Assembly: GCF_016862115.1 (NCBI RefSeq)
Contig: NZ_BOMI01000063.1
Coordinates: 1-64,000, forward strand
DNA: 64,000 nt
Reading direction: 5' to 3'
Source of the DNA: Paractinoplanes deccanensis
Lineage (GTDB): Bacteria > Actinomycetota > Actinomycetes > Mycobacteriales > Micromonosporaceae
Below are positions 33,266 through 41,904 of the stretch, one piece after another. Positions within the stretch are counted from its first letter, which is position 1. Each line of letters starts with the position of its first letter. Below the pieces are notes generated by a model. The model saw only the letters and a list, made by a program, of their open reading frames with translations. It had not been told where the DNA came from and searched no databases. A program made the position numbers and the translations under genes.

Positions 33266-33371
33266 CGGCCCAGGCTAGTCAACCGGATCCACCGCTGCGA
33301 AAGGCGGCGGTCACGAGACGCTCCCGGCTCGCATCGTTCGCGGCTTGGAGGAGGACTGCGATGATGACGCC

Positions 33372-35972
33372 ATGAAAAGCGAGCGCCGTGGCTCGGTGGG
33401 CCAGTGGCTGGCGGCGTCCGGCGCGCTGGTCACGGTGGCGCTCGGTGTGGTCACGAACCTGGTCACGGAGGCGCTGCCGACGACCTGGCGGTGGGCCCAG
33501 GACTGGCGGGTGACGGGCCTCCTCTTCCTGATCTTCACCGTGCTGATCGTGGGGCTCGCGGTCCCTCGTCGATGGTTCACGATCGGGTGGAGACGCGCGT
33601 CGCGGTACGCACGCGCGTACCGCGACTGGGTCGCCCGGATGGGGAATCGCCTCGACGCGGTCGGGCTCGCCACTGTCGGCCCGTCCACGCCGCCGCTCGA
33701 GGACGTCTTCGTGGACGTCACGCTCACGTCGAGGGCGCCCGGGCACGTGTGGCCGGGGGTGGTCGGCGCCGACGTGACCGGCGGGCGTCACCAAGCGTCC
33801 GACTTTCTCGATCAGCCCGATCGTGTGGTGCTCGTCGTTCTTGGTGCTCCCGGCAGCGGGAAGACGACTTTGCTGCGGCATATCGCACGGCAAACGGCTC
33901 TCACGCACGGCGAGAAGAGGCGGCCGGTCCCGGTGCTTCTGCAGCTGCGGGAGAGCGCGCCGGTCATCGCGGCGGCCGCGCCGGTGAGCCTGGCCGCGTT
34001 GATCCGGCGGAGCATCCCCGAGCTTCCCGAGATGGAGCCGTCCGGCTGGTGGGAGGCGCAACTACAGGCGGGACGGTGCCTGGTGCTGCTGGACGGTCTC
34101 GACGAGGTGGCCGACCGGGGGCAGCGGCGGGCGGTGGTGCGCTGGATCAACGAGCAGCTCACCGTTCATCCGGGCAACGATTTCGTCGTGACGTCCCGCC
34201 CGCACGGCTATCGCGAGTCGTTCGTGGACGCCACCGCCACGGTTCAGGTGCTGCCTTTCACCCGTGTGCAGGTGGAAACGTTCCTCCGCGGCTGGTACCG
34301 CACCGCCGAGCGCCAGGCGAACGGCAGCCCGGAGCGGGGAGACGAAGCGGCGCTGCACCTGATCGGCCAGTTGCGCGGGATGCCCGGACTTGCCGACCTC
34401 ACCGTGAATCCGCTGCTGCTCACGCTGATCGCCGAGGTGCACCGGTACGGGCGCCGCCGCGGCGAGAACAGGGGCCTCCCGGACAACAGAGCCGCCCTGT
34501 ACGCCGAGATGTGCGACGTCATGGTGCACCGGCGCGACGAGGAGCGCGAGCTCCCCGTCGACCTGCCACGGCAGCGTCGCGAGATCCTCGGCCGGCTCGC
34601 CTTCCTGTGGATGGGGCGCGGCGTTCGGAGCATGGGCCCGCCGGAGCTTTACCCCGTCCTGCGGCCCTGGCTGAGCGGCACGGACCCCGAGGGGTTCATC
34701 GTCGAGATGGAGCGCACCGGTCTTCTCGTGGCCCGGGAAGGCCAGGAGGTCGCCTTCGCACACCAGACCTTCCAGGAGTACCTCGCCGCTCGGCACCTCG
34801 CCGAGGACGAGCAACGGCAGAGCGTTCTGGTCGCGGCCGTCGACGACGTGTGGTGGCGCGAGACCACGCTCCTGTATGTCGATCTCTCGGACGCGTCCGA
34901 CGCGGTCGTGACCGGGTGCCTCGAGTCGGGCTCACCCAACGCCATGTCGCTGGCGTTCGCCATCGCCGAGTCGAGCGAGAAGCTGGCTGGGCATCTCCGT
35001 CGCCGGCTTGACAAGGTCTTGGAGGGCGCCAGACGGCCGGGTGCCGACTCGTTTCGCCGCGCCATCGCGGCCGATGTGCTCGTCGGCCGCTATCTGCGGG
35101 AGTGCGAGACGACGCTGCGGGGAAGCCGCATCGGGCGCCGGCCTGTCGGTGCAGACCTTTACGATCTCTTCGTCATGGACACCGGCACGCCGGCGCCGGA
35201 CGGGCCGCGAGGGGCCGGCGCGGCGCGGGGCATGTGGCGGCGTGACGCCGAGCAGTTCGTCGCCTGGCTGAACGGCGTCCTCGGCGAGGGATCTCGCGGA
35301 GTGACAGTCCGTCTGCCTTTCCAGGACGAGATCCAACCGAAGTCCGCGGTCGGGCCCGTCTGGACCAGCAACGGCCGCCGGACCCTGCTCACCTCGGCAA
35401 TCGGCGGGGTGCTGACCGTGAACGCCCGTCGCCTGATCGACGACGCCGCGAGGGATCTGCGCGGGTCGCGTCTGGCCGCGCCGGCGCTCGACGAGGACGA
35501 CTCCAGTGAGCATCCGGTCGATCGCGTGTTGAGCGCGGCGTCCGCACCGCTGTGGCTCCCGCCGCGCCGTTCCGAGGCGGACGATCCGGTGGCGGCCCTC
35601 GCCGCGGGGCTCCTGCCGGCTCACTACCCGATGTTCGACCAGATCCCGGTGGATCTGGACGACCTCGGCGAACTACTGGAGGTCTTGGCGAGTTCCTACA
35701 TCCGCCGGCTCCTGTCCGGAGGCGGCCTGGACAAGGTGCTGGATCTTGTCTTGCGGGCGGCGGAGCCTGCCATACGGCGGACCGGGCCGATCTCCGAGCG
35801 AGATGCGGCAGCCGTACGCGTCCCGGCGCTCGTCCTCGCCGGCGAGGCGCGACAAACCGGCAACCGGAAGCTCGCCAGCGCGCTCGTCTGGCTGGCGGCT
35901 GCGGTGTCCCTGCTGCAGGAACGAGCGCGGAACACGGCCCTGCTCGAAGTCGTGTACCTGGCGCACGACTGA
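33372..35972 (+). CDS. Membrane-anchored NACHT NTPase (STAND), candidate defence protein
   Basis: An 866-residue protein. Two membrane helices occur near residues 12-32 and 48-65. The NACHT ATPase has Walker A LGAPGSGKTTLLRH (158-170) and the NACHT-type Walker B LVLLDGLDEVAD (237-248), then the helical NACHT tail with HQTFQEYLAARHLAED. The C-terminal third lacks LRR/WD repeats; a patch FVAWLNGVLGEGSRG followed by VRLPFQDEI faintly recalls an FGE-sulfatase domain. NACHT proteins are known in bacteria as anti-phage (bNACHT) effectors. GC drops slightly and codon use is less biased than neighbours. The ATG at 33372 is 18 bp after GGAGGAGG; TTG 33345 is an alternative start. Confidence 0.85.
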   Translation: MKSERRGSVGQWLAASGALVTVALGVVTNLVTEALPTTWRWAQDWRVTGLLFLIFTVLIVGLAVPRRWFTIGWRRASRYARAYRDWVARMGNRLDAVGLATVGPSTPPLEDVFVDVTLTSRAPGHVWPGVVGADVTGGRHQASDFLDQPDRVVLVVLGAPGSGKTTLLRHIARQTALTHGEKRRPVPVLLQLRESAPVIAAAAPVSLAALIRRSIPELPEMEPSGWWEAQLQAGRCLVLLDGLDEVADRGQRRAVVRWINEQLTVHPGNDFVVTSRPHGYRESFVDATATVQVLPFTRVQVETFLRGWYRTAERQANGSPERGDEAALHLIGQLRGMPGLADLTVNPLLLTLIAEVHRYGRRRGENRGLPDNRAALYAEMCDVMVHRRDEERELPVDLPRQRREILGRLAFLWMGRGVRSMGPPELYPVLRPWLSGTDPEGFIVEMERTGLLVAREGQEVAFAHQTFQEYLAARHLAEDEQRQSVLVAAVDDVWWRETTLLYVDLSDASDAVVTGCLESGSPNAMSLAFAIAESSEKLAGHLRRRLDKVLEGARRPGADSFRRAIAADVLVGRYLRECETTLRGSRIGRRPVGADLYDLFVMDTGTPAPDGPRGAGAARGMWRRDAEQFVAWLNGVLGEGSRGVTVRLPFQDEIQPKSAVGPVWTSNGRRTLLTSAIGGVLTVNARRLIDDAARDLRGSRLAAPALDEDDSSEHPVDRVLSAASAPLWLPPRRSEADDPVAALAAGLLPAHYPMFDQIPVDLDDLGELLEVLASSYIRRLLSGGGLDKVLDLVLRAAEPAIRRTGPISERDAAAVRVPALVLAGEARQTGNRKLASALVWLAAAVSLLQERARNTALLEVVYLAHD

Positions 35973-35998
35973 GGCTTCGCGGCAGTAGCGTCCACGGC

Positions 35999-36763
35999 AT
36001 GGCCGATCATGAGCTGCTTCAGGACAAGCCGCATCGGCAGGTGGTGCGGGTGGGTGACACCGTGCGGCGGCCCCTGCAACCCTGGTCGGCCAGTGTGCAC
36101 GCGCTGCTGCGGCATCTCGAGGGCGCCGGTTTCCCGTACGCGCCGCGGGTTCTCGGGGTGGACGACGCGGGGCGCGAGGTGCTCACGTACGTCGAGGGCG
36201 AGTCCGGGCCGCACGGGTGGGCGAGGGTCGTCGACGAGGGCGGGCTGCGGGCGATGGCGCGGCTGCTGCGCGACTATCACCAGGCCGTGCGGGACTTCCG
36301 GCCGCACGTGGCCTGGGCGGGGCGCGACGAGCCGATGGCGGCGGACGAGCTGGTGTGCCACGGCGACTTCGGGCCGTGGAACCTGGTGTGGCGCGGGTCC
36401 GAGCCGGTCGGGGTGATCGACTGGGATTACGCGTGGCCCGCTCGGCCCGTCCACGATGTGGCCTACGCGCTGGAGTATGTGGCGCCGTTCCGGGACGACG
36501 AGACGTGCCTGCGGTGGCTCGCCTATCCGGCGCCTCCGGACCGGCGCCGGCGGATGGAGATCTTCGCGGAGGCGTACGGCCTCGGCAGTCTGGACGGGCT
36601 GGTCGACGAGGTGATCGGGCAGCAGGAGATGGTATGGGACCGTGCCCGCCGCCTCGCCGCGCAGGGGCGCCAGCCGCAGGCCGAGTGGCAGGCGACCGGG
36701 TTCCTCGACGAGACGGCGGGCCGGGTGCGGTGGAGCCGCGACAACCGGCGGCTATTCGAGTGA
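35999..36763 (+). CDS. Aminoglycoside-phosphotransferase-family kinase
   Basis: A 254-residue kinase of the APH/ChoK fold. The catalytic loop CHGDFGPWNLVW gives His121, Asp123 and Asn128, and the metal-binding motif VIDWDYA gives Asp141. The N-lobe is short (RQVVRVGDTVRRP), so the nucleotide-binding lysine is not obvious. Many such genes phosphorylate small alcohols rather than drugs, so resistance is unproven, though it adjoins an Erm methylase. It begins 27 bp after the NACHT stop, and its 3' end overlaps the convergent erm gene by 12 bp. Confidence 0.85.
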   Translation: MADHELLQDKPHRQVVRVGDTVRRPLQPWSASVHALLRHLEGAGFPYAPRVLGVDDAGREVLTYVEGESGPHGWARVVDEGGLRAMARLLRDYHQAVRDFRPHVAWAGRDEPMAADELVCHGDFGPWNLVWRGSEPVGVIDWDYAWPARPVHDVAYALEYVAPFRDDETCLRWLAYPAPPDRRRRMEIFAEAYGLGSLDGLVDEVIGQQEMVWDRARRLAAQGRQPQAEWQATGFLDETAGRVRWSRDNRRLFE

Positions 36764-37522
36764 CAGCAGCCGGAAGAGGGTGAGCCACTGCTCCGGCCAC
36801 ACCTCGCCGGCCGGGGTGTCGTGCAGGCGCACCGCGCGGCAGGCGGCGTCGGCCCGGCGTGTGCCGTACCGGCGCCCCAGCGAGGCGCGCACCGAGCCGC
36901 CCACCCCGGAGAAGCCGCACTCCACCATCGACTCGTACCGGGCGAGGCGTGCCGGAGGCACCAGTGGCACCGGACGGCGGGTCAGGCGCAGGATGCCCGC
37001 GTCGACCCGGGGCACCGGCCGGAACGCCGTCCGCGGCAGGTGGCCCGCCAGCTCCCACACGACCGACGGCCAGGTGCGCACGGTCAGTTTGGACCAGCGG
37101 CCGTAGTCGCCGGTGCGCTTGCGCGCGTACTCCCACTGGGTGATCAGGGTGGCCCGCCGCAGCGAGGGCGCGCGCAGGCACCACGTCACGAGGGCGGAGG
37201 TCAGCACGTACGGGATGTTGCTCACCACCTGGAACGGTCCGTCGGGCGGCGCCGCCGCCAGGAAATCGCCGGTGCGCACGCTCAGGCGGTCATGGCGCGG
37301 CAGGTCGCGGGCCATGCCGGGGTCGATCTCGTACGCGACGACGCGCGCGGCGCGGCGCACCAGCTCGGCGGTGAGCCGGCCCCGGCCCGCGCCCGCCTCG
37401 TAGACGAGGTCGCCGGCGGACAGCTCGGCGGCGTCGACCACGCGCCGGACGGCCCTGGGGTCGGTGAGGAAGTTCTGCCCGAGCACACGCCGGTTGCGTA
37501 CATGTTCAGCTTTGAAAGCCAC
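36752..37522 (-). CDS. erm: Erm-type 23S rRNA adenine N6-methyltransferase (MLS resistance)
   Basis: A 256-residue enzyme of the KsgA/Erm family. RVLGQNFLTD (residues 12-21), motif I VYEAGAGRGRLT (40-51), YEIDP and the catalytic NIPY (102-105) are all intact. The short length and the RNRRVLGQNF start favour Erm over KsgA. It would dimethylate or monomethylate A2058 and protect ribosomes from macrolides, lincosamides and streptogramin B. GTG 37522 lies inside the palindrome CACGGCCGTG. The 5' region has alternative hairpins, a short leader ORF and a WhiB7-like promoter, so it is probably drug-inducible. Confidence 0.92.
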   Translation of the reverse strand: MAFKAEHVRNRRVLGQNFLTDPRAVRRVVDAAELSAGDLVYEAGAGRGRLTAELVRRAARVVAYEIDPGMARDLPRHDRLSVRTGDFLAAAPPDGPFQVVSNIPYVLTSALVTWCLRAPSLRRATLITQWEYARKRTGDYGRWSKLTVRTWPSVVWELAGHLPRTAFRPVPRVDAGILRLTRRPVPLVPPARLARYESMVECGFSGVGGSVRASLGRRYGTRRADAACRAVRLHDTPAGEVWPEQWLTLFRLLSLE

Positions 37523-37544
37523 GGCCGTGAATCCGTTCGGAAAC

Positions 37545-37594
37545 GCGGACAGGCGGAATCGGGGGCCCGTCCGCTGAGGAAGATGGACTCAGCG
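37545..37594 (-). promoter_or_regulatory. Mutually exclusive hairpins in the erm leader (attenuator)
   Basis: Stem A pairs 37588-37594 with 37572-37578 (CGCTGAG/CTCAGCG, perfect 7 bp, 9-base loop). Stem B pairs 37565-37574 with 37545-37554 (10 bp with one G-U, 10-base loop). The two share bases 37572-37574 and cannot fully form together. They lie between the leader ORF stop and the erm start, as expected for attenuation by ribosome stalling. Confidence 0.6.
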
Positions 37595-37626
37595 AAGGCC
37601 CTGGCGGCGCAAAAGCGTCGTAAAGG

Positions 37627-37722
37627 TCAGAGGTCAGACGGCGCGACCAGGGCGGGACGCGCGGCGCGGAGACGAGCGGCCGGCGTCCAGGCCCCGAGGA
37701 TCAGAGCGTGCGTCGTAGGCAT
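37627..37722 (-). CDS. Putative 31-residue erm leader peptide
   Basis: An ATG at 37722 opens a 31-codon frame (MPTTHALILGAWTPAARLR...) ending at TGA 37627, 104 bp before erm. The start falls about 6-7 bases after the -10 hexamer, so the mRNA would be leaderless and translation would start at its first bases. Short leader ORFs whose translation stalls on macrolide-bound ribosomes control many erm genes. Too short for composition tests, so support is positional. Confidence 0.55.
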   Translation of the reverse strand: MPTTHALILGAWTPAARLRAARPALVAPSDL

Positions 37723-37728
37723 CCGCCG

Positions 37729-37765
37729 ACCATAGGAGACCCCGGTCCCCCGGTCGACCGATTTT
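37729..37765 (-). promoter_or_regulatory. WhiB7-like promoter of the erm transcript
   Basis: Read on the minus strand: AAAAT (37761-37765), then CGG, a -35 of TCGACC (37752-37757), a 17-bp spacer and a -10 of TATGGT (37729-37734). An A-rich patch directly upstream of a -35 is the known signature of WhiB7-SigA promoters in mycobacteria and streptomycetes, where they drive ribosome-antibiotic resistance genes including erm. Confidence 0.6.
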
Positions 37766-37843
37766 CCGGCTGTGACCGGCCTCGCGCGACAGGTTACTGA
37801 CAAGTTGGTGGCGGAACGGCGCCACGATCAGGAGGCTGTCGCC

Positions 37844-38761
37844 ATGACTACGACGTTCGATCGGGCCGCCGCACGGGGCAGCGCGGAGTTTCTGCGCGAC
37901 AAGCGGCTCGAGCTGTCCGCCCTCACGATCCCGACCGGCCGGGGCTGGGCGCCGCTCGGCGCGGAGGTCGCCGACTGCCTGGTCAAGCGGCCCGCCACCA
38001 TCGGCGACGTGATCGCGATGCTGGTCACAATGCAGGAGATCCTCGACGAGCTGCCGCCGAGCCGGGCCAACAACCGGGTCTCGGCCTTCAACGAGCTCTA
38101 CCTCAAGATCACTCGCCGGGTGGACCAGGCGCTGGTGGACGGGGTCAACTCGCCGGAGTTCCTCGAGCGGCTCGACGTCGAGTTCGCCAAGCGCTACTTC
38201 GACGCGATCGGCCTGTGGAACGACGACGACGAGGACACCCCCGACGTGTGGGAGGTGCTCTTCAAGCGGGCCGGCGACGTGGAGATGACCCGCCTGACCG
38301 CCGCCATGCTCGGCGTGAACGCGCACATCAACCACGACCTCGCGCTCGCCCTGATCGCCACGTGGGTCGACGTGGGCGCGCCCGAGGACGACATCATCCA
38401 CCCCGACTACCTGCTGGTGAACCAGATCTTCTACGAGGAGATCCCGCCGCTGCGCCGGGGCTTCTCCGACCGCTGGCAGATGAAGCTCGACAAGTGGGTC
38501 GGCCCGCTCGACGACTGGAGCCAGCGCATGCTGGTCACCGTGACCCGGGCGCGCGCGTGGGACCAGGCCCGCCGCCTGTGGCTGCTGCGCAACGACCAGG
38601 ACGACTTCGAGCAGGCCCGCCGCACCATGGACCGCGCCGCCTCGTTGCTCGCCGAGTGGGCGATCATCGGTGACCGCGTGGTCTCCGAGACCGGTGAGGT
38701 GGCCGAGGACTGGCGCGACCTGCTGCGCAGGATTCTCGGCCGGGACGGCAAGGCCGCCTGA
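37844..38761 (+). CDS. DUF5995-family protein
   Basis: A 305-residue soluble helical protein like the DUF5995 family: GDVIAMLVTMQEILDELPP, FNELYLKITRRVDQAL and, near the middle, GVNAHINHDLALALIATW with conserved histidines, then WDQARRLWLLRND. The function is unknown; the HINHDL motif could bind metal. The ATG at 37844 has AGGAGG 8 bp upstream, so the longer frame from 37772 is not used. It is divergent from the erm leader. Confidence 0.85.
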   Translation: MTTTFDRAAARGSAEFLRDKRLELSALTIPTGRGWAPLGAEVADCLVKRPATIGDVIAMLVTMQEILDELPPSRANNRVSAFNELYLKITRRVDQALVDGVNSPEFLERLDVEFAKRYFDAIGLWNDDDEDTPDVWEVLFKRAGDVEMTRLTAAMLGVNAHINHDLALALIATWVDVGAPEDDIIHPDYLLVNQIFYEEIPPLRRGFSDRWQMKLDKWVGPLDDWSQRMLVTVTRARAWDQARRLWLLRNDQDDFEQARRTMDRAASLLAEWAIIGDRVVSETGEVAEDWRDLLRRILGRDGKAA

Positions 38762-38802: not shown

Positions 38803-41800
38803 ATGCTTCGTACGGCGGCTCCGCCCTCCTTCGGCGCGCTGTTCGAATCGTCGCCGATCGGCATGGCCGTGGTGGACCTCGACGGCGAGTGGGTGCGTGT
38901 CAACCCCGCGATCGCCGCCATGCTCGGCTACGCCCCCGAGGAGCTGCTCGCGCGTCCCCGCAAGTCGATCATCCACCCGGAGGACTTCGACAACGACGCG
39001 GCGCAGGCGGCCGACCTGCTGGCCGGGCGCGTCGAGAGCTACCGCGTGCACAAGCGGTATCGGCGCCGCGACGGCGGGCTCACCCACGGACTGCTCACCG
39101 TCACGCTGCTGCGCGACGACGACGGCGAGCCCGTGCACCTGCTCGGCCAGCTCGTCGACGTCACCGCCACCCTCGCGGCGCAGAAGGCACACGAGCGCAG
39201 CGAGGAGCAGTTCCGCACCGCGTTCGACGGCAGCCCGATCGGCCTGCTCATCGCCGACGAGCACGGCCGGTTCCGGCGGGCCAACGCGGCCGCCGCCGAG
39301 CTCACCGGCCGCCCGATCGAGGAGCTGATCGGGCTCACCCACCGGGAGATCACCGACCCGGCCGACATCGAGGCGAGCGCCCGCGCCCGCCTCGAACTGC
39401 TACGCGGCGCCGCCGACGTGCAGTACGACAACCGGCTGCGGCACGCCGACGGGCGGATCAGCTGGACCCGGGTCAGCCTGTCGCTGATCCCCGGCCCGGA
39501 CGGGCGCCGCTGGCGGCTCGTGCAACTCCAGGACATCACCGCCGAACGGGCCGCCGCGCTCGCCGCCGAGCGCGAGGTGCAGCGCCTGCGCGCCACGCTC
39601 GCCGTGCAGCGCGACGTCACCGCGGCCGCCGCCGACCGCGACGCCGCCCTGCGGGTGGTCGCGGCCCGCGCGGTCGAGCTCTTCGAGGACGCCGACGGCG
39701 CGGCGGCCGAGCTGGCCGAGGGCGGCGAGCTGGTCTTCGCCGCCACGGCGGGCACGCTGGCGGTGGCGGAGGGCGCCCGGGTGCCGGTCGCCGGGTCGCT
39801 CAGCGGCCAGGTGCTGACCACCGGCGCGCCCGCGCACTGCGCCGACACGTCCACCGACCCGCGCGTCGACCGGGCCGCGTGCCGGCGCCACGGCATCGGC
39901 TCGATGATGATCGCCCCGCTGTACGCGGAGAACCGGGTCATCGGCTGCCTGAAGGTGTCGTCGGCCCGCACCGGCGCGTTCGACGCACCCGAGGTGCAGC
40001 AGCTCGCCCTGCTCGCCGACAGCCTCAGCTCGGCGCTCCAGCACGCCGACGACGCCGCGCGCAACGCCGCCCTGCTGGTCGAGCGCACCCACGCGCTGGC
40101 CCTGCTGGAGGCGAGCGAGACCCGCTTCCGGATGACCTTCGACAACTCGCCGCTCGGCGTCGGCCTGATCAGCCTCGCCGAGGACGACGCCGGCCGCTAC
40201 CTGCAGGCCAACCCGGCCATGTCGGCGATCACCGGCTACCGCGCCGACGAGCTGCTGCGCATGCGGTATGCCGACCTGCTCGTCCCCGGGGACCGGCGGC
40301 CGTCGCCGTCGGCCCGGGAGGTGGTGCGCTACCGGCACAAGGACGGCCACGAGGTGTGGGTGTCCTCCCGTACGGCCGAGGTCCGCGACGAAGCCGGACG
40401 CCCCCTCTATCTCGTCAGCCAGGTCGAGGACGTGACCGCCCAGCGGGCCGCCGAGGCCGAGCTGCGCCGCCAGGCGCGCCTGCTCGAGCTGATCCCGGCC
40501 GCGGTGATCGTGCGCGACCGCGACGGCACCATCCGCTGGTGGAACGCGGGCGCCGAGCAGCTGTACGGGTGGCCGCTGCCCGCGGTCGCCGGCAAGAACA
40601 TCAACCGGCTGCTCTCCACGGTCTTCCCGGACGAGACGACCGAGCAGGACGCGCTCGACGGGCTGGTGCGCGACGGGCACTGGGACGGCCAGCTCGAGCA
40701 CCTCACCGCGGCCGGCCGGGTCGTCACCGTGCTCAGCCGGCAGGTGCTGCACCTGCCCGCCGACCAGGTCCTCGAGATCAACACGGATGTGACCGCGGCC
40801 CGCGCCGCGGAGCAGGCCCTCGCCGAGAGCGAGCAACGGTTCCGCGCCCAGTTCACCCACTCCGCGGCCGGGCAGGCGATCTACGGGCTGGACGGCTCGC
40901 TCGTGTCGGTCAACCCGGCGTACGCGGCGATGCTCGGCCACACCGTGGACGAGCTCGTGGGCCGCCTCGACCGGGAGCTGGTGCACCCCGACGACCTGAC
41001 GGAGAGCCGCCGGCACCGGGCCGACCTGTTCACCGGCGAGCGCGACGCGTACACCCAGGAAGGGCGCCTGCGCCACGCCGACGGCCACTGGGTCGACGTG
41101 GCGGCGACGTTCTCGGTGGTCCGCGAGGCCGGCGGCCGGCCGAAGCACCTCATCGGCGTGTTCACGGACGTGTCCGCGCGCCGGGCCGCCGAGGCGGACC
41201 GGGACCGGGCGGCCGCCGCGCTGGCCGAGCGCAACACCGAGCTGGAGGCGGCGAACCAGCTGAAGCTCGACATCATCGGCATGCTCGGCCACGAGATCGG
41301 CAACCCGCTCTCGTCGATCCGCGGCTACGCCGAGGTGCTCGCCGACGACGACCACCCGCCGGCGCTGCGCGAGAGGGCGGTCGAGGCGATCACCCGGCAG
41401 GCCGGGCGGCTCGACGACATCGTGCGCGAGGTGCTGGCGATGGTCTCCATCGACGCGGGCTCGATCACGGCCGTACGGCAGAAGGTCGCGCTCCGCGAGC
41501 AGATCGCCCAGGCCCTGGTGGCGATGGACATGGAGAGCCTGCCGGTGCTGGGCGACGACTGCCAGGCGCTGTGCAACCCGGGGCATCTTCAGCAGATCCT
41601 GGCGAACCTGCTCTCCAACGCGGCGAAGTACGGCGGCGGCGCCACCTCGATCACCCTGGACCACAGCGGCACGCGGGTGACGATCAGCGTGGCCGACAAC
41701 GGCCCCGGCGTGCCGGCGGAGTTCCGGCCGCGCCTCTTCCAGCGTCTGGCCCGCGCCGAACGCGACGCCACCAGTGTGCGGGGCACAGGGCTGGGCCTCT

Positions 41801-41904
41801 ACATCGTGCGAGGGCTGGCCCAGGCGAACGAGGGCGACATCACCTACACCCCCGACCCGTCAGGCGGGTCGATCTTCGCACTCACCCTTGAGCCGGCACC
41901 CTGA
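38803..41904 (+). CDS. Soluble multi-PAS/GAF sensor histidine kinase
   Basis: A 1033-residue hybrid sensor with no membrane helix. Order: PAS (about 8-125), PAS (135-250), GAF (270-420), PAS (435-545), PAS (550-670), PAS (675-790), coiled coil, HisKA with IIGMLGHEIGNPLSSIRGY (phosphorylated His), and HATPase with N-box ILANLLSNAAKYG, G1 DNGPGVP and G2 GTGLGLYIV. It should autophosphorylate in response to cytosolic cues. No response regulator is adjacent, so it is an orphan kinase. Its stop lies only 5 bp from the stop of the convergent STAND gene. Confidence 0.92.
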   Translation: MLRTAAPPSFGALFESSPIGMAVVDLDGEWVRVNPAIAAMLGYAPEELLARPRKSIIHPEDFDNDAAQAADLLAGRVESYRVHKRYRRRDGGLTHGLLTVTLLRDDDGEPVHLLGQLVDVTATLAAQKAHERSEEQFRTAFDGSPIGLLIADEHGRFRRANAAAAELTGRPIEELIGLTHREITDPADIEASARARLELLRGAADVQYDNRLRHADGRISWTRVSLSLIPGPDGRRWRLVQLQDITAERAAALAAEREVQRLRATLAVQRDVTAAAADRDAALRVVAARAVELFEDADGAAAELAEGGELVFAATAGTLAVAEGARVPVAGSLSGQVLTTGAPAHCADTSTDPRVDRAACRRHGIGSMMIAPLYAENRVIGCLKVSSARTGAFDAPEVQQLALLADSLSSALQHADDAARNAALLVERTHALALLEASETRFRMTFDNSPLGVGLISLAEDDAGRYLQANPAMSAITGYRADELLRMRYADLLVPGDRRPSPSAREVVRYRHKDGHEVWVSSRTAEVRDEAGRPLYLVSQVEDVTAQRAAEAELRRQARLLELIPAAVIVRDRDGTIRWWNAGAEQLYGWPLPAVAGKNINRLLSTVFPDETTEQDALDGLVRDGHWDGQLEHLTAAGRVVTVLSRQVLHLPADQVLEINTDVTAARAAEQALAESEQRFRAQFTHSAAGQAIYGLDGSLVSVNPAYAAMLGHTVDELVGRLDRELVHPDDLTESRRHRADLFTGERDAYTQEGRLRHADGHWVDVAATFSVVREAGGRPKHLIGVFTDVSARRAAEADRDRAAAALAERNTELEAANQLKLDIIGMLGHEIGNPLSSIRGYAEVLADDDHPPALRERAVEAITRQAGRLDDIVREVLAMVSIDAGSITAVRQKVALREQIAQALVAMDMESLPVLGDDCQALCNPGHLQQILANLLSNAAKYGGGATSITLDHSGTRVTISVADNGPGVPAEFRPRLFQRLARAERDATSVRGTGLGLYIVRGLAQANEGDITYTPDPSGGSIFALTLEPAP

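What the first reader, a model, noticed from the sequence alone, without database searches (positions are those of the whole stretch)
36752..37765. Drug-inducible erm with WhiB7-like promoter, leaderless leader ORF and alternative hairpins
An A-rich box plus TCGACC-17-TATGGT matches WhiB7 promoters; the predicted first transcribed base falls on or next to the ATG of a 31-codon ORF; two hairpins that share three bases lie before erm, whose GTG sits in a palindrome. Double control by WhiB7 and ribosome stalling is predicted.
Basis: partly seen in the sequence, partly recalled or inferred. Interest (0 to 1): 0.75.

Follow-up and report, generated by a model that had tools for sequence, protein, structure and literature searches.

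The report
Leaderless arrest-peptide switch before erm
Upstream of a macrolide-resistance gene in an Actinoplanes-like soil bacterium lies a stress-type promoter whose transcript appears to begin at the start codon of a small, probably drug-sensing peptide, and the same layout recurs before this gene in many other actinobacteria.

Summary
On the minus strand an erm gene (36752-37522) is preceded by a WhiB7/WblC-type promoter (GAAAAT-3-TCGACC-17-TATGGT). Its predicted +1 is the A of the ATG of a 31-codon ORF. One promoter-plus-ORF rule finds this layout in 80 of 93 distinct erm upstream regions; shuffles gave 9 of 1860, none at the high score. Outside the family: 20 of 26 further loci.

Leader codons just after it pair with a downstream segment (P0); P0 and a second helix, P2, covary. 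Both Arg vary only synonymously in 25 aligned leaders.

Best reading: WhiB7 switches transcription on; a drug-stalled ribosome on the leaderless leader ORF then sets the RNA fold that controls erm. Which fold is ON is not settled: equilibrium folding gave no direction, and no intrinsic terminator was found. Each ingredient is known; I found no description of the combination in the papers I could search. New variant of a known kind.

The parts
36752..37522 (-). erm gene, 256 codons, GTG start; 23S rRNA adenine-N6 methyltransferase
   Evidence: NCBIfam Erm23S_rRNA_broad 237.9 bits against cut-off 212; Pfam PF00398; best match among solved structures 6nvm, E 1.1e-74
37761..37766 (-). WhiB7/WblC box GAAAAT (fits GAAAWY)
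   Evidence: consensus from PMC7157823
37752..37757 (-). -35 element TCGACC, 3 nt after the box
37729..37734 (-). -10 element TATGGT, spacer 17
37627..37722 (-). leader ORF, 31 codons, ATG at the predicted +1; Arg17-Leu18-Arg19 arrest motif
   Evidence: synonymous-only variation at both Arg in 25 aligned leaders
37666..37674 (-). codons CGT CTC CGC for Arg-Leu-Arg
37646..37653 (-). P0 5' strand GCCCTGGT inside the leader ORF, 18 nt after the first nt of the presumed P-site codon
   Evidence: covariation
37598..37605 (-). P0 3' strand GCCAGGGC (segment A1)
37563..37601 (-). hairpin P1 (A:B), -22.2 kcal/mol
   Evidence: this piece folds better than its shuffles in 20 of 20 aligned sequences (z below -1 in each; window z -4.2)
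37545..37574 (-). hairpin P2 (B:C) GCGGACGGGC/GCCTGTCCGC, -19.9 kcal/mol, mutually exclusive with P1
   Evidence: two-sided changes at 3 of 9 pairs in the MAFFT alignment
37531..37550 (-). weak C:D hairpin (P3; GTCCG/CGGAT) over the presumed SD region; reduced in the window compared with relatives
   Evidence: no covariation above shuffles
37528..37591 (-). possible long pairing TGAGTCC/GGATTCA (P4) between the P1 loop side and the presumed SD region
   Evidence: 4 nearly invariant bp in the 53-row alignment, so untested by covariation

Best explanation
This is a two-input, drug-inducible control device for erm. Step 1: WhiB7, made when ribosomes are inhibited, activates a SigA-type promoter through the GAAAAT box. 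Step 2: the transcript starts at or within a base of the leader ATG, so ribosomes load without a Shine-Dalgarno site. Step 3: a macrolide- or ketolide-bound ribosome arrests at Arg17-Leu18-Arg19, with Leu18 in the P site as in ErmDL. Step 4: the arrested ribosome's front edge lies just before the leader codons that form one strand of helix P0. Ribosomes that pass the motif would melt P0; an arrested one would leave it free to pair with A1. That weakens hairpin P1 and favours hairpin P2, changing access to the erm start. Shown here from sequence: the promoter match, the ORF and its residue-level conservation, the motif, P0 and P2 covariation, and the geometry. Inferred: the TSS, WhiB7 dependence, arrest, the fold that is ON, and translational rather than transcriptional control.
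For: Promoter-plus-leaderless-ORF rule: 80 of 93 distinct erm upstreams, against 9 of 1860 shuffles and 0 of 93 reverse strands. 20 of 27 upstreams outside the family, 20 of 26 after removing one repeat. [RK]x[RK] in 78 of 80, shuffled mean 41.4, maximum 53, and in 20 of 20 of the leaders found outside the family. Both Arg columns: 176 and 24 synonymous codon pairs, 0 nonsynonymous; His, Ala and Leu of the N-terminal block 144, 164 and 138, also 0, in 25 leaders chosen for having that block. P0 and P2: 97.2% of 320 cells paired, 11 two-sided cells against 2.2 in shuffles, 0 of 500 as high. P0 of 7 bp or more in 51 of 80 leaders, starting 13-18 nt after the P-site nt in 49 of these 51; 50 codon-order shuffles gave a mean of 19, maximum 27. 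P1: mean z -2.05 over 20 sequences. A covariance model built from the genus and its neighbours hits 65 of 250 family genomes, once each: 64 lie just upstream of erm matches and the 65th before an erm with a broken frame. WhiB7-like protein L006. Outside support: SCO6089, an Erm(O)-type gene, is WblC-induced (PMC7157823 passages). ErmDL arrests with Leu in the P site at Arg-Leu-Arg (PMC8298421 passages).
Against: Equilibrium folding of 38 of 80 leaders shows no difference in SD or start-codon access between an arrested and a terminating ribosome (p 0.86 and 0.50). Blocking A1 raises P2 in the window (0.33 to 0.98), but over 51 of 80 leaders 15 rise and 12 fall (p 0.13). P3, the helix that would hide the SD, shows no covariation and is reduced in the window. 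In one search the number of two-sided pairs (4, against 1.6) was reached by 4 of 500 shuffles and the number of pair types was not above shuffles; four of the five P0 double changes (L008-L011) may be one inherited event. P0 of 7 bp or more was not found in 29 of 80 leaders, two of which had no Arg-x-Arg to search from. The covariance model matched only 53 of the 93 held loci. The erm SD region of the window is weak. ERY arrest on ErmDL does not strictly need Arg-Leu-Arg (PMC8298421 passages). No WhiB7-type promoter was found in the 1.4 kb held upstream of the whiB7-like gene with a stricter rule. A generic sigma-70 scan finds no promoter here. No TSS, binding or induction data.
Confidence: 0.77

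Rival explanations
1. Same promoter and same arrest peptide, but the RNA switch works on transcription: one of P1/P2 makes RNA polymerase stop early (perhaps with Rho or without a U-tract) unless a ribosome is arrested on the leader.
For: whiB7/wblC itself and Streptomyces ABCF genes use uORF-coupled transcription attenuation (PMC10727445 and PMC12421871 passages). P2 outweighs P1 at equilibrium in 44 of 51 leaders when A1 is free, though not in the window, and P1 and P2 are exclusive.
Against: No terminator-like site in 37300-37900 on either strand. An SD-like AGAC[AG]GGA stands next to the erm start in many relatives.
Confidence: 0.25
2. WhiB7 control only: the leader ORF and hairpins are remnants without a regulatory role.
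For: Mycobacterial erm(37)/erm(41) belong to the WhiB7 regulon, and erm(37) is described as an exception to uORF control (PMC4128351 passages; PMC10727445 passages).
Against: Synonymous-only change at both Arg, Arg-x-Arg in 78 of 80, covarying P0 and P2.
Confidence: 0.06
3. Leader-peptide control only: the A-rich box is a chance feature of an ordinary promoter and WhiB7 plays no part.
For: WhiB7 binding cannot be tested here; -35 elements are weak and vary.
Against: The box with correct spacing is present in 80 of 93 upstreams and in 20 of 26 further ones outside the family, and hardly ever in shuffles. A WhiB7-like protein is encoded. The S. coelicolor Erm(O)-type gene is WblC-induced.
Confidence: 0.08
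4. Chance or annotation artefact in a GC-rich genome.
For: GC-rich sequence folds readily and Arg codons are common (frames +1 and +2 also show [RK]x[RK] in 50 and 45 of 80).
Against: The controls.
Confidence: 0.02

Closest known systems
ErmDL-type (+X+) macrolide/ketolide-inducible erm leader
   Same: Arg-x-Arg arrest motif in a short leader ORF upstream of erm; ErmDL arrest at Arg6-Leu7-Arg8
   Different: Here the leader ORF is predicted leaderless, its promoter is WhiB7-type, and the first motif begins at residue 8-29 rather than residue 6
WhiB7/WblC regulon erm genes: erm(37), erm(41), SCO6089
   Same: WhiB7/WblC control of erm; M. abscessus WhiB7 binds upstream of erm(41)
   Different: An arrest-peptide leader was not mentioned for these in the passages I read; erm(37) is described there as an exception to uORF control
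whiB7/wblC uORF attenuator
   Same: uORF plus alternative RNA hairpins, responding to ribosome inhibitors
   Different: In mycobacteria that uORF follows an SD motif and a terminator-like stem with a T-rich tail (PMC4128351 passages); no such terminator here
Leaderless amino-acid attenuator peptides of Streptomyces (leuL, trpL, ilvL)
   Same: leaderless leader peptide before hairpins (PMC8079986 passages)
   Different: They respond to amino-acid supply; here the motif is one known to sense macrolide-bound ribosomes
uORFC-6-1 motif before hflX in Bacillales
   Same: conserved Arg-Leu-Arg uORF inside a covarying RNA structure (PMC8632094 passages)
   Different: different phylum and different gene; no WhiB7 promoter mentioned in the passages seen

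Membership tests
Erm 23S rRNA methyltransferase | Erm family model over its cut-off | tested here: met
   NF000499.2 at 237.9 bits, cut-off 212; the ErmE/H/O/R exception model scored 314.6, below its cut-off of 320
Erm 23S rRNA methyltransferase | dimethylates A2058 and gives MLS resistance | not testable with these tools
   needs assay
WhiB7/WblC regulon promoter | GAAAWY 3 nt before TKGMNN, 16-19 nt, TANNNT | tested here: met
   GAAAAT-CGG-TCGACC-17-TATGGT; the second base of the -35 is C, not G or T
WhiB7/WblC regulon promoter | WhiB7 ortholog in the genome | tested here: met
   L006, GVWGG and RGRP AT-hook, one of 6 Wbl matches; called WhiB7 by these marks, no tree made
WhiB7/WblC regulon promoter | WhiB7 binding and WhiB7-dependent induction | not testable with these tools
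   needs ChIP or deletion
Leaderless mRNA | TSS at the start codon | not testable with these tools
   predicted only: -10 to ATG 6 nt here, 6-8 nt in 80 of 80 hits (allowed range 5-8); TSS 7-8 bp after -10 in most S. coelicolor WblC promoters
Leaderless mRNA | no Shine-Dalgarno before the start codon | tested here: met
   SD-like 4-mer in 1 of 80
+X+ macrolide-arrest leader peptide | [RK]x[RK] in a short ORF that looks translated | tested here: met
   RLR at 17-19; 78 of 80 leaders, window included; synonymous-only change at both Arg
+X+ macrolide-arrest leader peptide | drug-dependent arrest with the middle residue in the P site | not testable with these tools
   needs toeprinting
ErmC-type translational attenuator | alternative helices supported by comparison | tested here: met
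   P0 and P2 covary; P1 folds better than shuffles, mean z -2.05
ErmC-type translational attenuator | ground-state helix hiding the erm SD, released on arrest | tested here: inconclusive
   P3 without covariation; no change of SD access in folding
uORF-coupled intrinsic-terminator attenuator (whiB7 type) | GC hairpin followed by a T-run | tested here: not met
   no site in 37300-37900

The most novel reading that the evidence does not exclude
An ancestral, actinobacteria-wide AND gate: the WhiB7 promoter's first transcribed base is the start codon of an arrest peptide, so the general stress input and the drug-specific input are fused. The stall logic is inverted relative to ErmC: the arrested ribosome stops just short of one strand of a helix (P0) and thereby preserves it, whereas ribosomes that pass destroy it. 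The separately conserved N-terminal His-Ala-Leu block may be a second, early arrest site for other drugs.
Probability: 0.28. Interest if true: 0.75.

Novelty: new variant of a known kind. Interest (0 to 1): 0.6.

Why it matters
In the passages I read, inducible erm in mycobacteria and Streptomyces is described through WhiB7/WblC, and a 2024 survey of erm upstream regions found no universal uORF pattern (PMC11264731, section 15 read). A conserved promoter-to-codon fusion with an arrest peptide would give actinobacterial erm genes a second, drug-specific sensor and predict which drugs induce them. It would make a testable case of arrest-peptide sensing on a leaderless mRNA, and the covariance model made here can be used to look for more such leaders.

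Tried and rejected
Rejected: the GTG palindrome as a conserved element (absent in L046, L009). Intrinsic termination at P1 or P2. Chance. Rfam membership: no match in 37300-38000 at E up to 5.

Led nowhere: partition-function folding to find the ON fold, 38 of 80 leaders (no effect). Blocking A1, 51 of 80 leaders (effect in the window, not significant overall). A WhiB7-type promoter before the whiB7-like gene in L006 (none, with a rule stricter than that). In the 53-row model-fitted alignment A3, the P0 column pairs of long-spacer Micromonospora rows are probably misplaced outside the ORF, so I did not use A3 for P0.

Rows dropped: 10 duplicates of 103 upstreams. L062-L068 (weak hits that I take to be KsgA/RsmA, not tested) and L039 (the window itself) were not used. 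In one search, L150 and L159 were left out as the same family; the other 27 are the best-scoring loci returned from 44 matches in 43 of 394 genomes, and one of them (L152 = L021) repeats a named locus. The rule's range of 5-8 nt was narrowed from 4-9; four Nocardiopsis loci with 9 nt were thereby lost. The 25 leaders were chosen for the His-Ala-Leu block: five genus-level leaders without it (L013, L014, L057, L058, L061) were left out, so the constancy of those three residues is partly by choice; the synonymous changes and the two Arg are not. Alignment A2 has 20 sequences of the clade; L007, L014, L050, L070, L071, L072 and L075 were left out for insertions, degeneracy or close similarity.
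Full report
What is there. The gene at 36752-37522 on the minus strand is an erm methyltransferase. Its best relatives are in Paractinoplanes and Actinoplanes, so the window probably comes from that group; the genome has 10.6 Mb. Of 67 genomes of the genus searched, 23 have a match above 200 bits; 35 more have only matches of about 75-94 bits, which I take to be KsgA/RsmA without having tested it (the first look scores a limited number of candidates, so 23 may be an undercount). Upstream, on the same strand, are the box GAAAAT (37766-37761), TCGACC (37757-37752), TATGGT (37734-37729) and, 6 nt later, the ATG of a 31-codon ORF ending at 37627.

Promoter. The WblC consensus of S. coelicolor is GAAAWY, 3 bp, TKGMNN, 16-19 bp, TANNNT, with most starts 7 or 8 bp after the -10 (PMC7157823, section 10 read). 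The window fits, with its predicted +1 on the A of the ATG; the second base of its -35 is C, not G or T. I turned the consensus into a rule that allows some mismatches in the box and the -35 and also demands an ATG or GTG 5-8 nt after the -10 and an ORF of 12-60 codons. It hits 80 of 93 distinct erm upstreams (10 duplicates of 103 removed), 72 of them at score 11 or more. Shuffled upstreams give 9 of 1860 and 0 of 1860 at that score; reverse strands give 0 of 93; in the whole window the only hit of 11 or more is this one. The range 5-8 was set. Distances to the start are 6 (34), 7 (45) and 8 (1). An SD-like 4-mer stands before the leader start in 1 of 80. A generic sigma-70 scan lists nothing in 37300-37900. 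Among the 27 best loci returned from outside the family, 20 have the layout, and one of the seven misses repeats a locus already counted. The named hits among the 80 include Streptomyces, Actinomadura, Microtetraspora, Nocardiopsis, Rhodococcus, Goodfellowiella and Stackebrandtia. The genome has six Wbl matches, and L006 alone has both GVWGG and an RGRP AT-hook (the AT-hook as the mark of WhiB7 is recalled).

Leader peptide. [RK]x[RK] occurs in 78 of 80 leaders; residue shuffles give a mean of 41.4 and a maximum of 53, and the other two frames give 50 and 45. The 20 leaders found outside the family have it too. The two without it (L077, L103) read Arg-Pro-Trp-Ile-Arg-Arg. For ErmDL the arrest at Arg6-Leu7-Arg8 has Leu7 in the P site and Arg8 in the A site; with erythromycin the motif is less strictly needed than with telithromycin (PMC8298421, passages). 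In 25 aligned leaders, window included, both Arg of the motif differ only synonymously (176 and 24 codon pairs, none nonsynonymous); so do His, Ala and Leu of the N-terminal block (144, 164, 138), but these 25 were chosen for having that block, which 18 of 23 genus-level leaders and 53 of all 80 have. The ORF as a whole shows little third-position excess (2427, 2425, 2549 differences at positions 1, 2, 3). So the ORF looks translated and selected at those residues, while elsewhere the peptide drifts.

RNA. P0 joins leader codons just after the motif (GCCCTGGT, 37653-37646) to a downstream segment (GCCAGGGC, 37605-37598). P1 is the hairpin 37601-37563 and P2 the hairpin 37574-37545; they exclude each other. 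On the MAFFT alignment A2 (20 sequences, not fitted to a structure) P0 plus P2 have 97.2% of 320 cells paired, four pairs with two-sided change (one in P0, three in P2; 4 of 500 shuffles reach four), 11 such cells against 2.2 in shuffles with 0 of 500 as high, and a covariation score that 0 of 500 reach; the number of pair types is not above shuffles; sliding the partners lowers pairing to below 50%. In P0 five relatives (L008-L011, L013) change both the codon base and its partner (T-A to C-G), which puts Pro for Leu in the leader while keeping the pair. L008-L011 may be a single inherited event; in L014, close to L013, the pair is T-G, a possible intermediate. P3, which would hide the SD, is mostly paired in relatives but without covariation above shuffles, and the window has only 5 bp of it. 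P1 pieces fold better than their shuffles in 20 of 20 sequences, window included (z from -1.1 to -4.2, mean -2.05). P0 with 7 or more contiguous pairs is found in 51 of 80 leaders (50 codon-order shuffles: mean 19.2, maximum 27); in 49 of the 51 it starts 13-18 nt after the first nt of the presumed P-site codon, about where the front of an arrested ribosome should end (the footprint of about 15 nt is recalled).

Specificity of the element. A covariance model of P0, P2 and the tip of P3 finds one site in the window's genome at E 1.6e-9, this one; the next is at E 3. It matches 53 of the 93 held loci at E up to 0.01. In 250 family genomes, with stricter filters, it finds 65 sites, one per genome. 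I compared the coordinates with the erm matches: 64 lie upstream of one on the same strand, within about 260 nt; the remaining one (G247) I fetched, and it lies before an erm-like sequence whose frame is broken. The element was thus found only with erm, though the model misses many erm upstreams that have the promoter and leader. The window region has no Rfam match at E up to 5, and in 14 related loci the only gathering-level match was a ZTP riboswitch in L044.

Mechanism. Firm from sequence: a WhiB7-type promoter, predicted leaderless initiation, a leader with an arrest motif, and an RNA with at least two covarying helices, one of which is made of leader codons. Inferred: WhiB7 activates, the drug-bound ribosome arrests, and arrest decides the fold. 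The position of P0 suggests that an arrested ribosome leaves P0 intact while passing ribosomes melt it; P0 takes part of P1's base and so favours P2. In the window, blocking A1 moves P2 from 0.33 to 0.98. But over 51 of 80 leaders the shift is not significant (15 up, 12 down, p 0.13), and over 38 of 80 folding shows no change of SD access. The direction is therefore open, and so is the choice between translational and transcriptional control, although no intrinsic terminator was found.

Known against new. erm under WhiB7/WblC is known (PMC10727445, PMC7157823, PMC4128351, PMC4974804, passages). The Arg-Leu-Arg leader ErmDL is known, as are an Arg-Leu-Arg uORF before hflX in Bacillales (PMC8632094, passages) and leaderless attenuator peptides in Streptomyces (PMC8079986, passages). 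ABCF genes in S. coelicolor use uORF attenuation (PMC12421871, passages). A 2024 survey of erm upstreams reports no universal uORF pattern (PMC11264731, section 15). In ten library searches I saw in the listings no paper on this combination; several listings were capped. Subscription papers are mostly missing: work on ermSF (recalled), ermSV (seen only in the reference list of PMC13410324) and pikR1/pikR2 (named in PMC6685928 passages), and the wblC uORF paper (not held), may cover parts of it.

Noticed in passing
window 37722-37699 (-) and leaders of relatives: The leader's N-terminal Thr-His-Ala-Leu block: where it is present (His-Ala-Leu in 53 of 80 leaders), codons vary synonymously, and the block lies about 10-18 residues before Arg-x-Arg at no fixed distance (the window lacks 6-7 middle residues). 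Perhaps a second, early arrest site; unexplained.
   Followed up: partly
L148 (G247): A Micromonosporaceae genome keeps the RNA leader element before an erm-like sequence whose reading frame is broken.
   Followed up: no
L072: A relative keeps promoter and leader ORF, but the downstream RNA element looks degenerate.
   Followed up: no
L044:1008-1110 (-): ZMP/ZTP riboswitch match near the erm leader of a relative, on the opposite strand (44 bits, gathering 39).
   Followed up: no
window 36752-36763: The erm end overlaps by 12 bp the end of a convergent APH-family (PF01636) ORF (35552-36763).
   Followed up: no
window 33345-35972: An 875-aa NACHT-domain protein lies upstream of the APH-family ORF.
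   Followed up: no
window 38803-41904: A 1033-aa sensor kinase with several PAS domains and a GAF domain, preceded by a DUF5995 gene (37844-38761) that is divergent from the leader.
   Followed up: no
L077, L103: Two leaders lack Arg-x-Arg (RPWIRR where close relatives have RPRVRR) while keeping the rest; a natural test of the motif's need.
   Followed up: no
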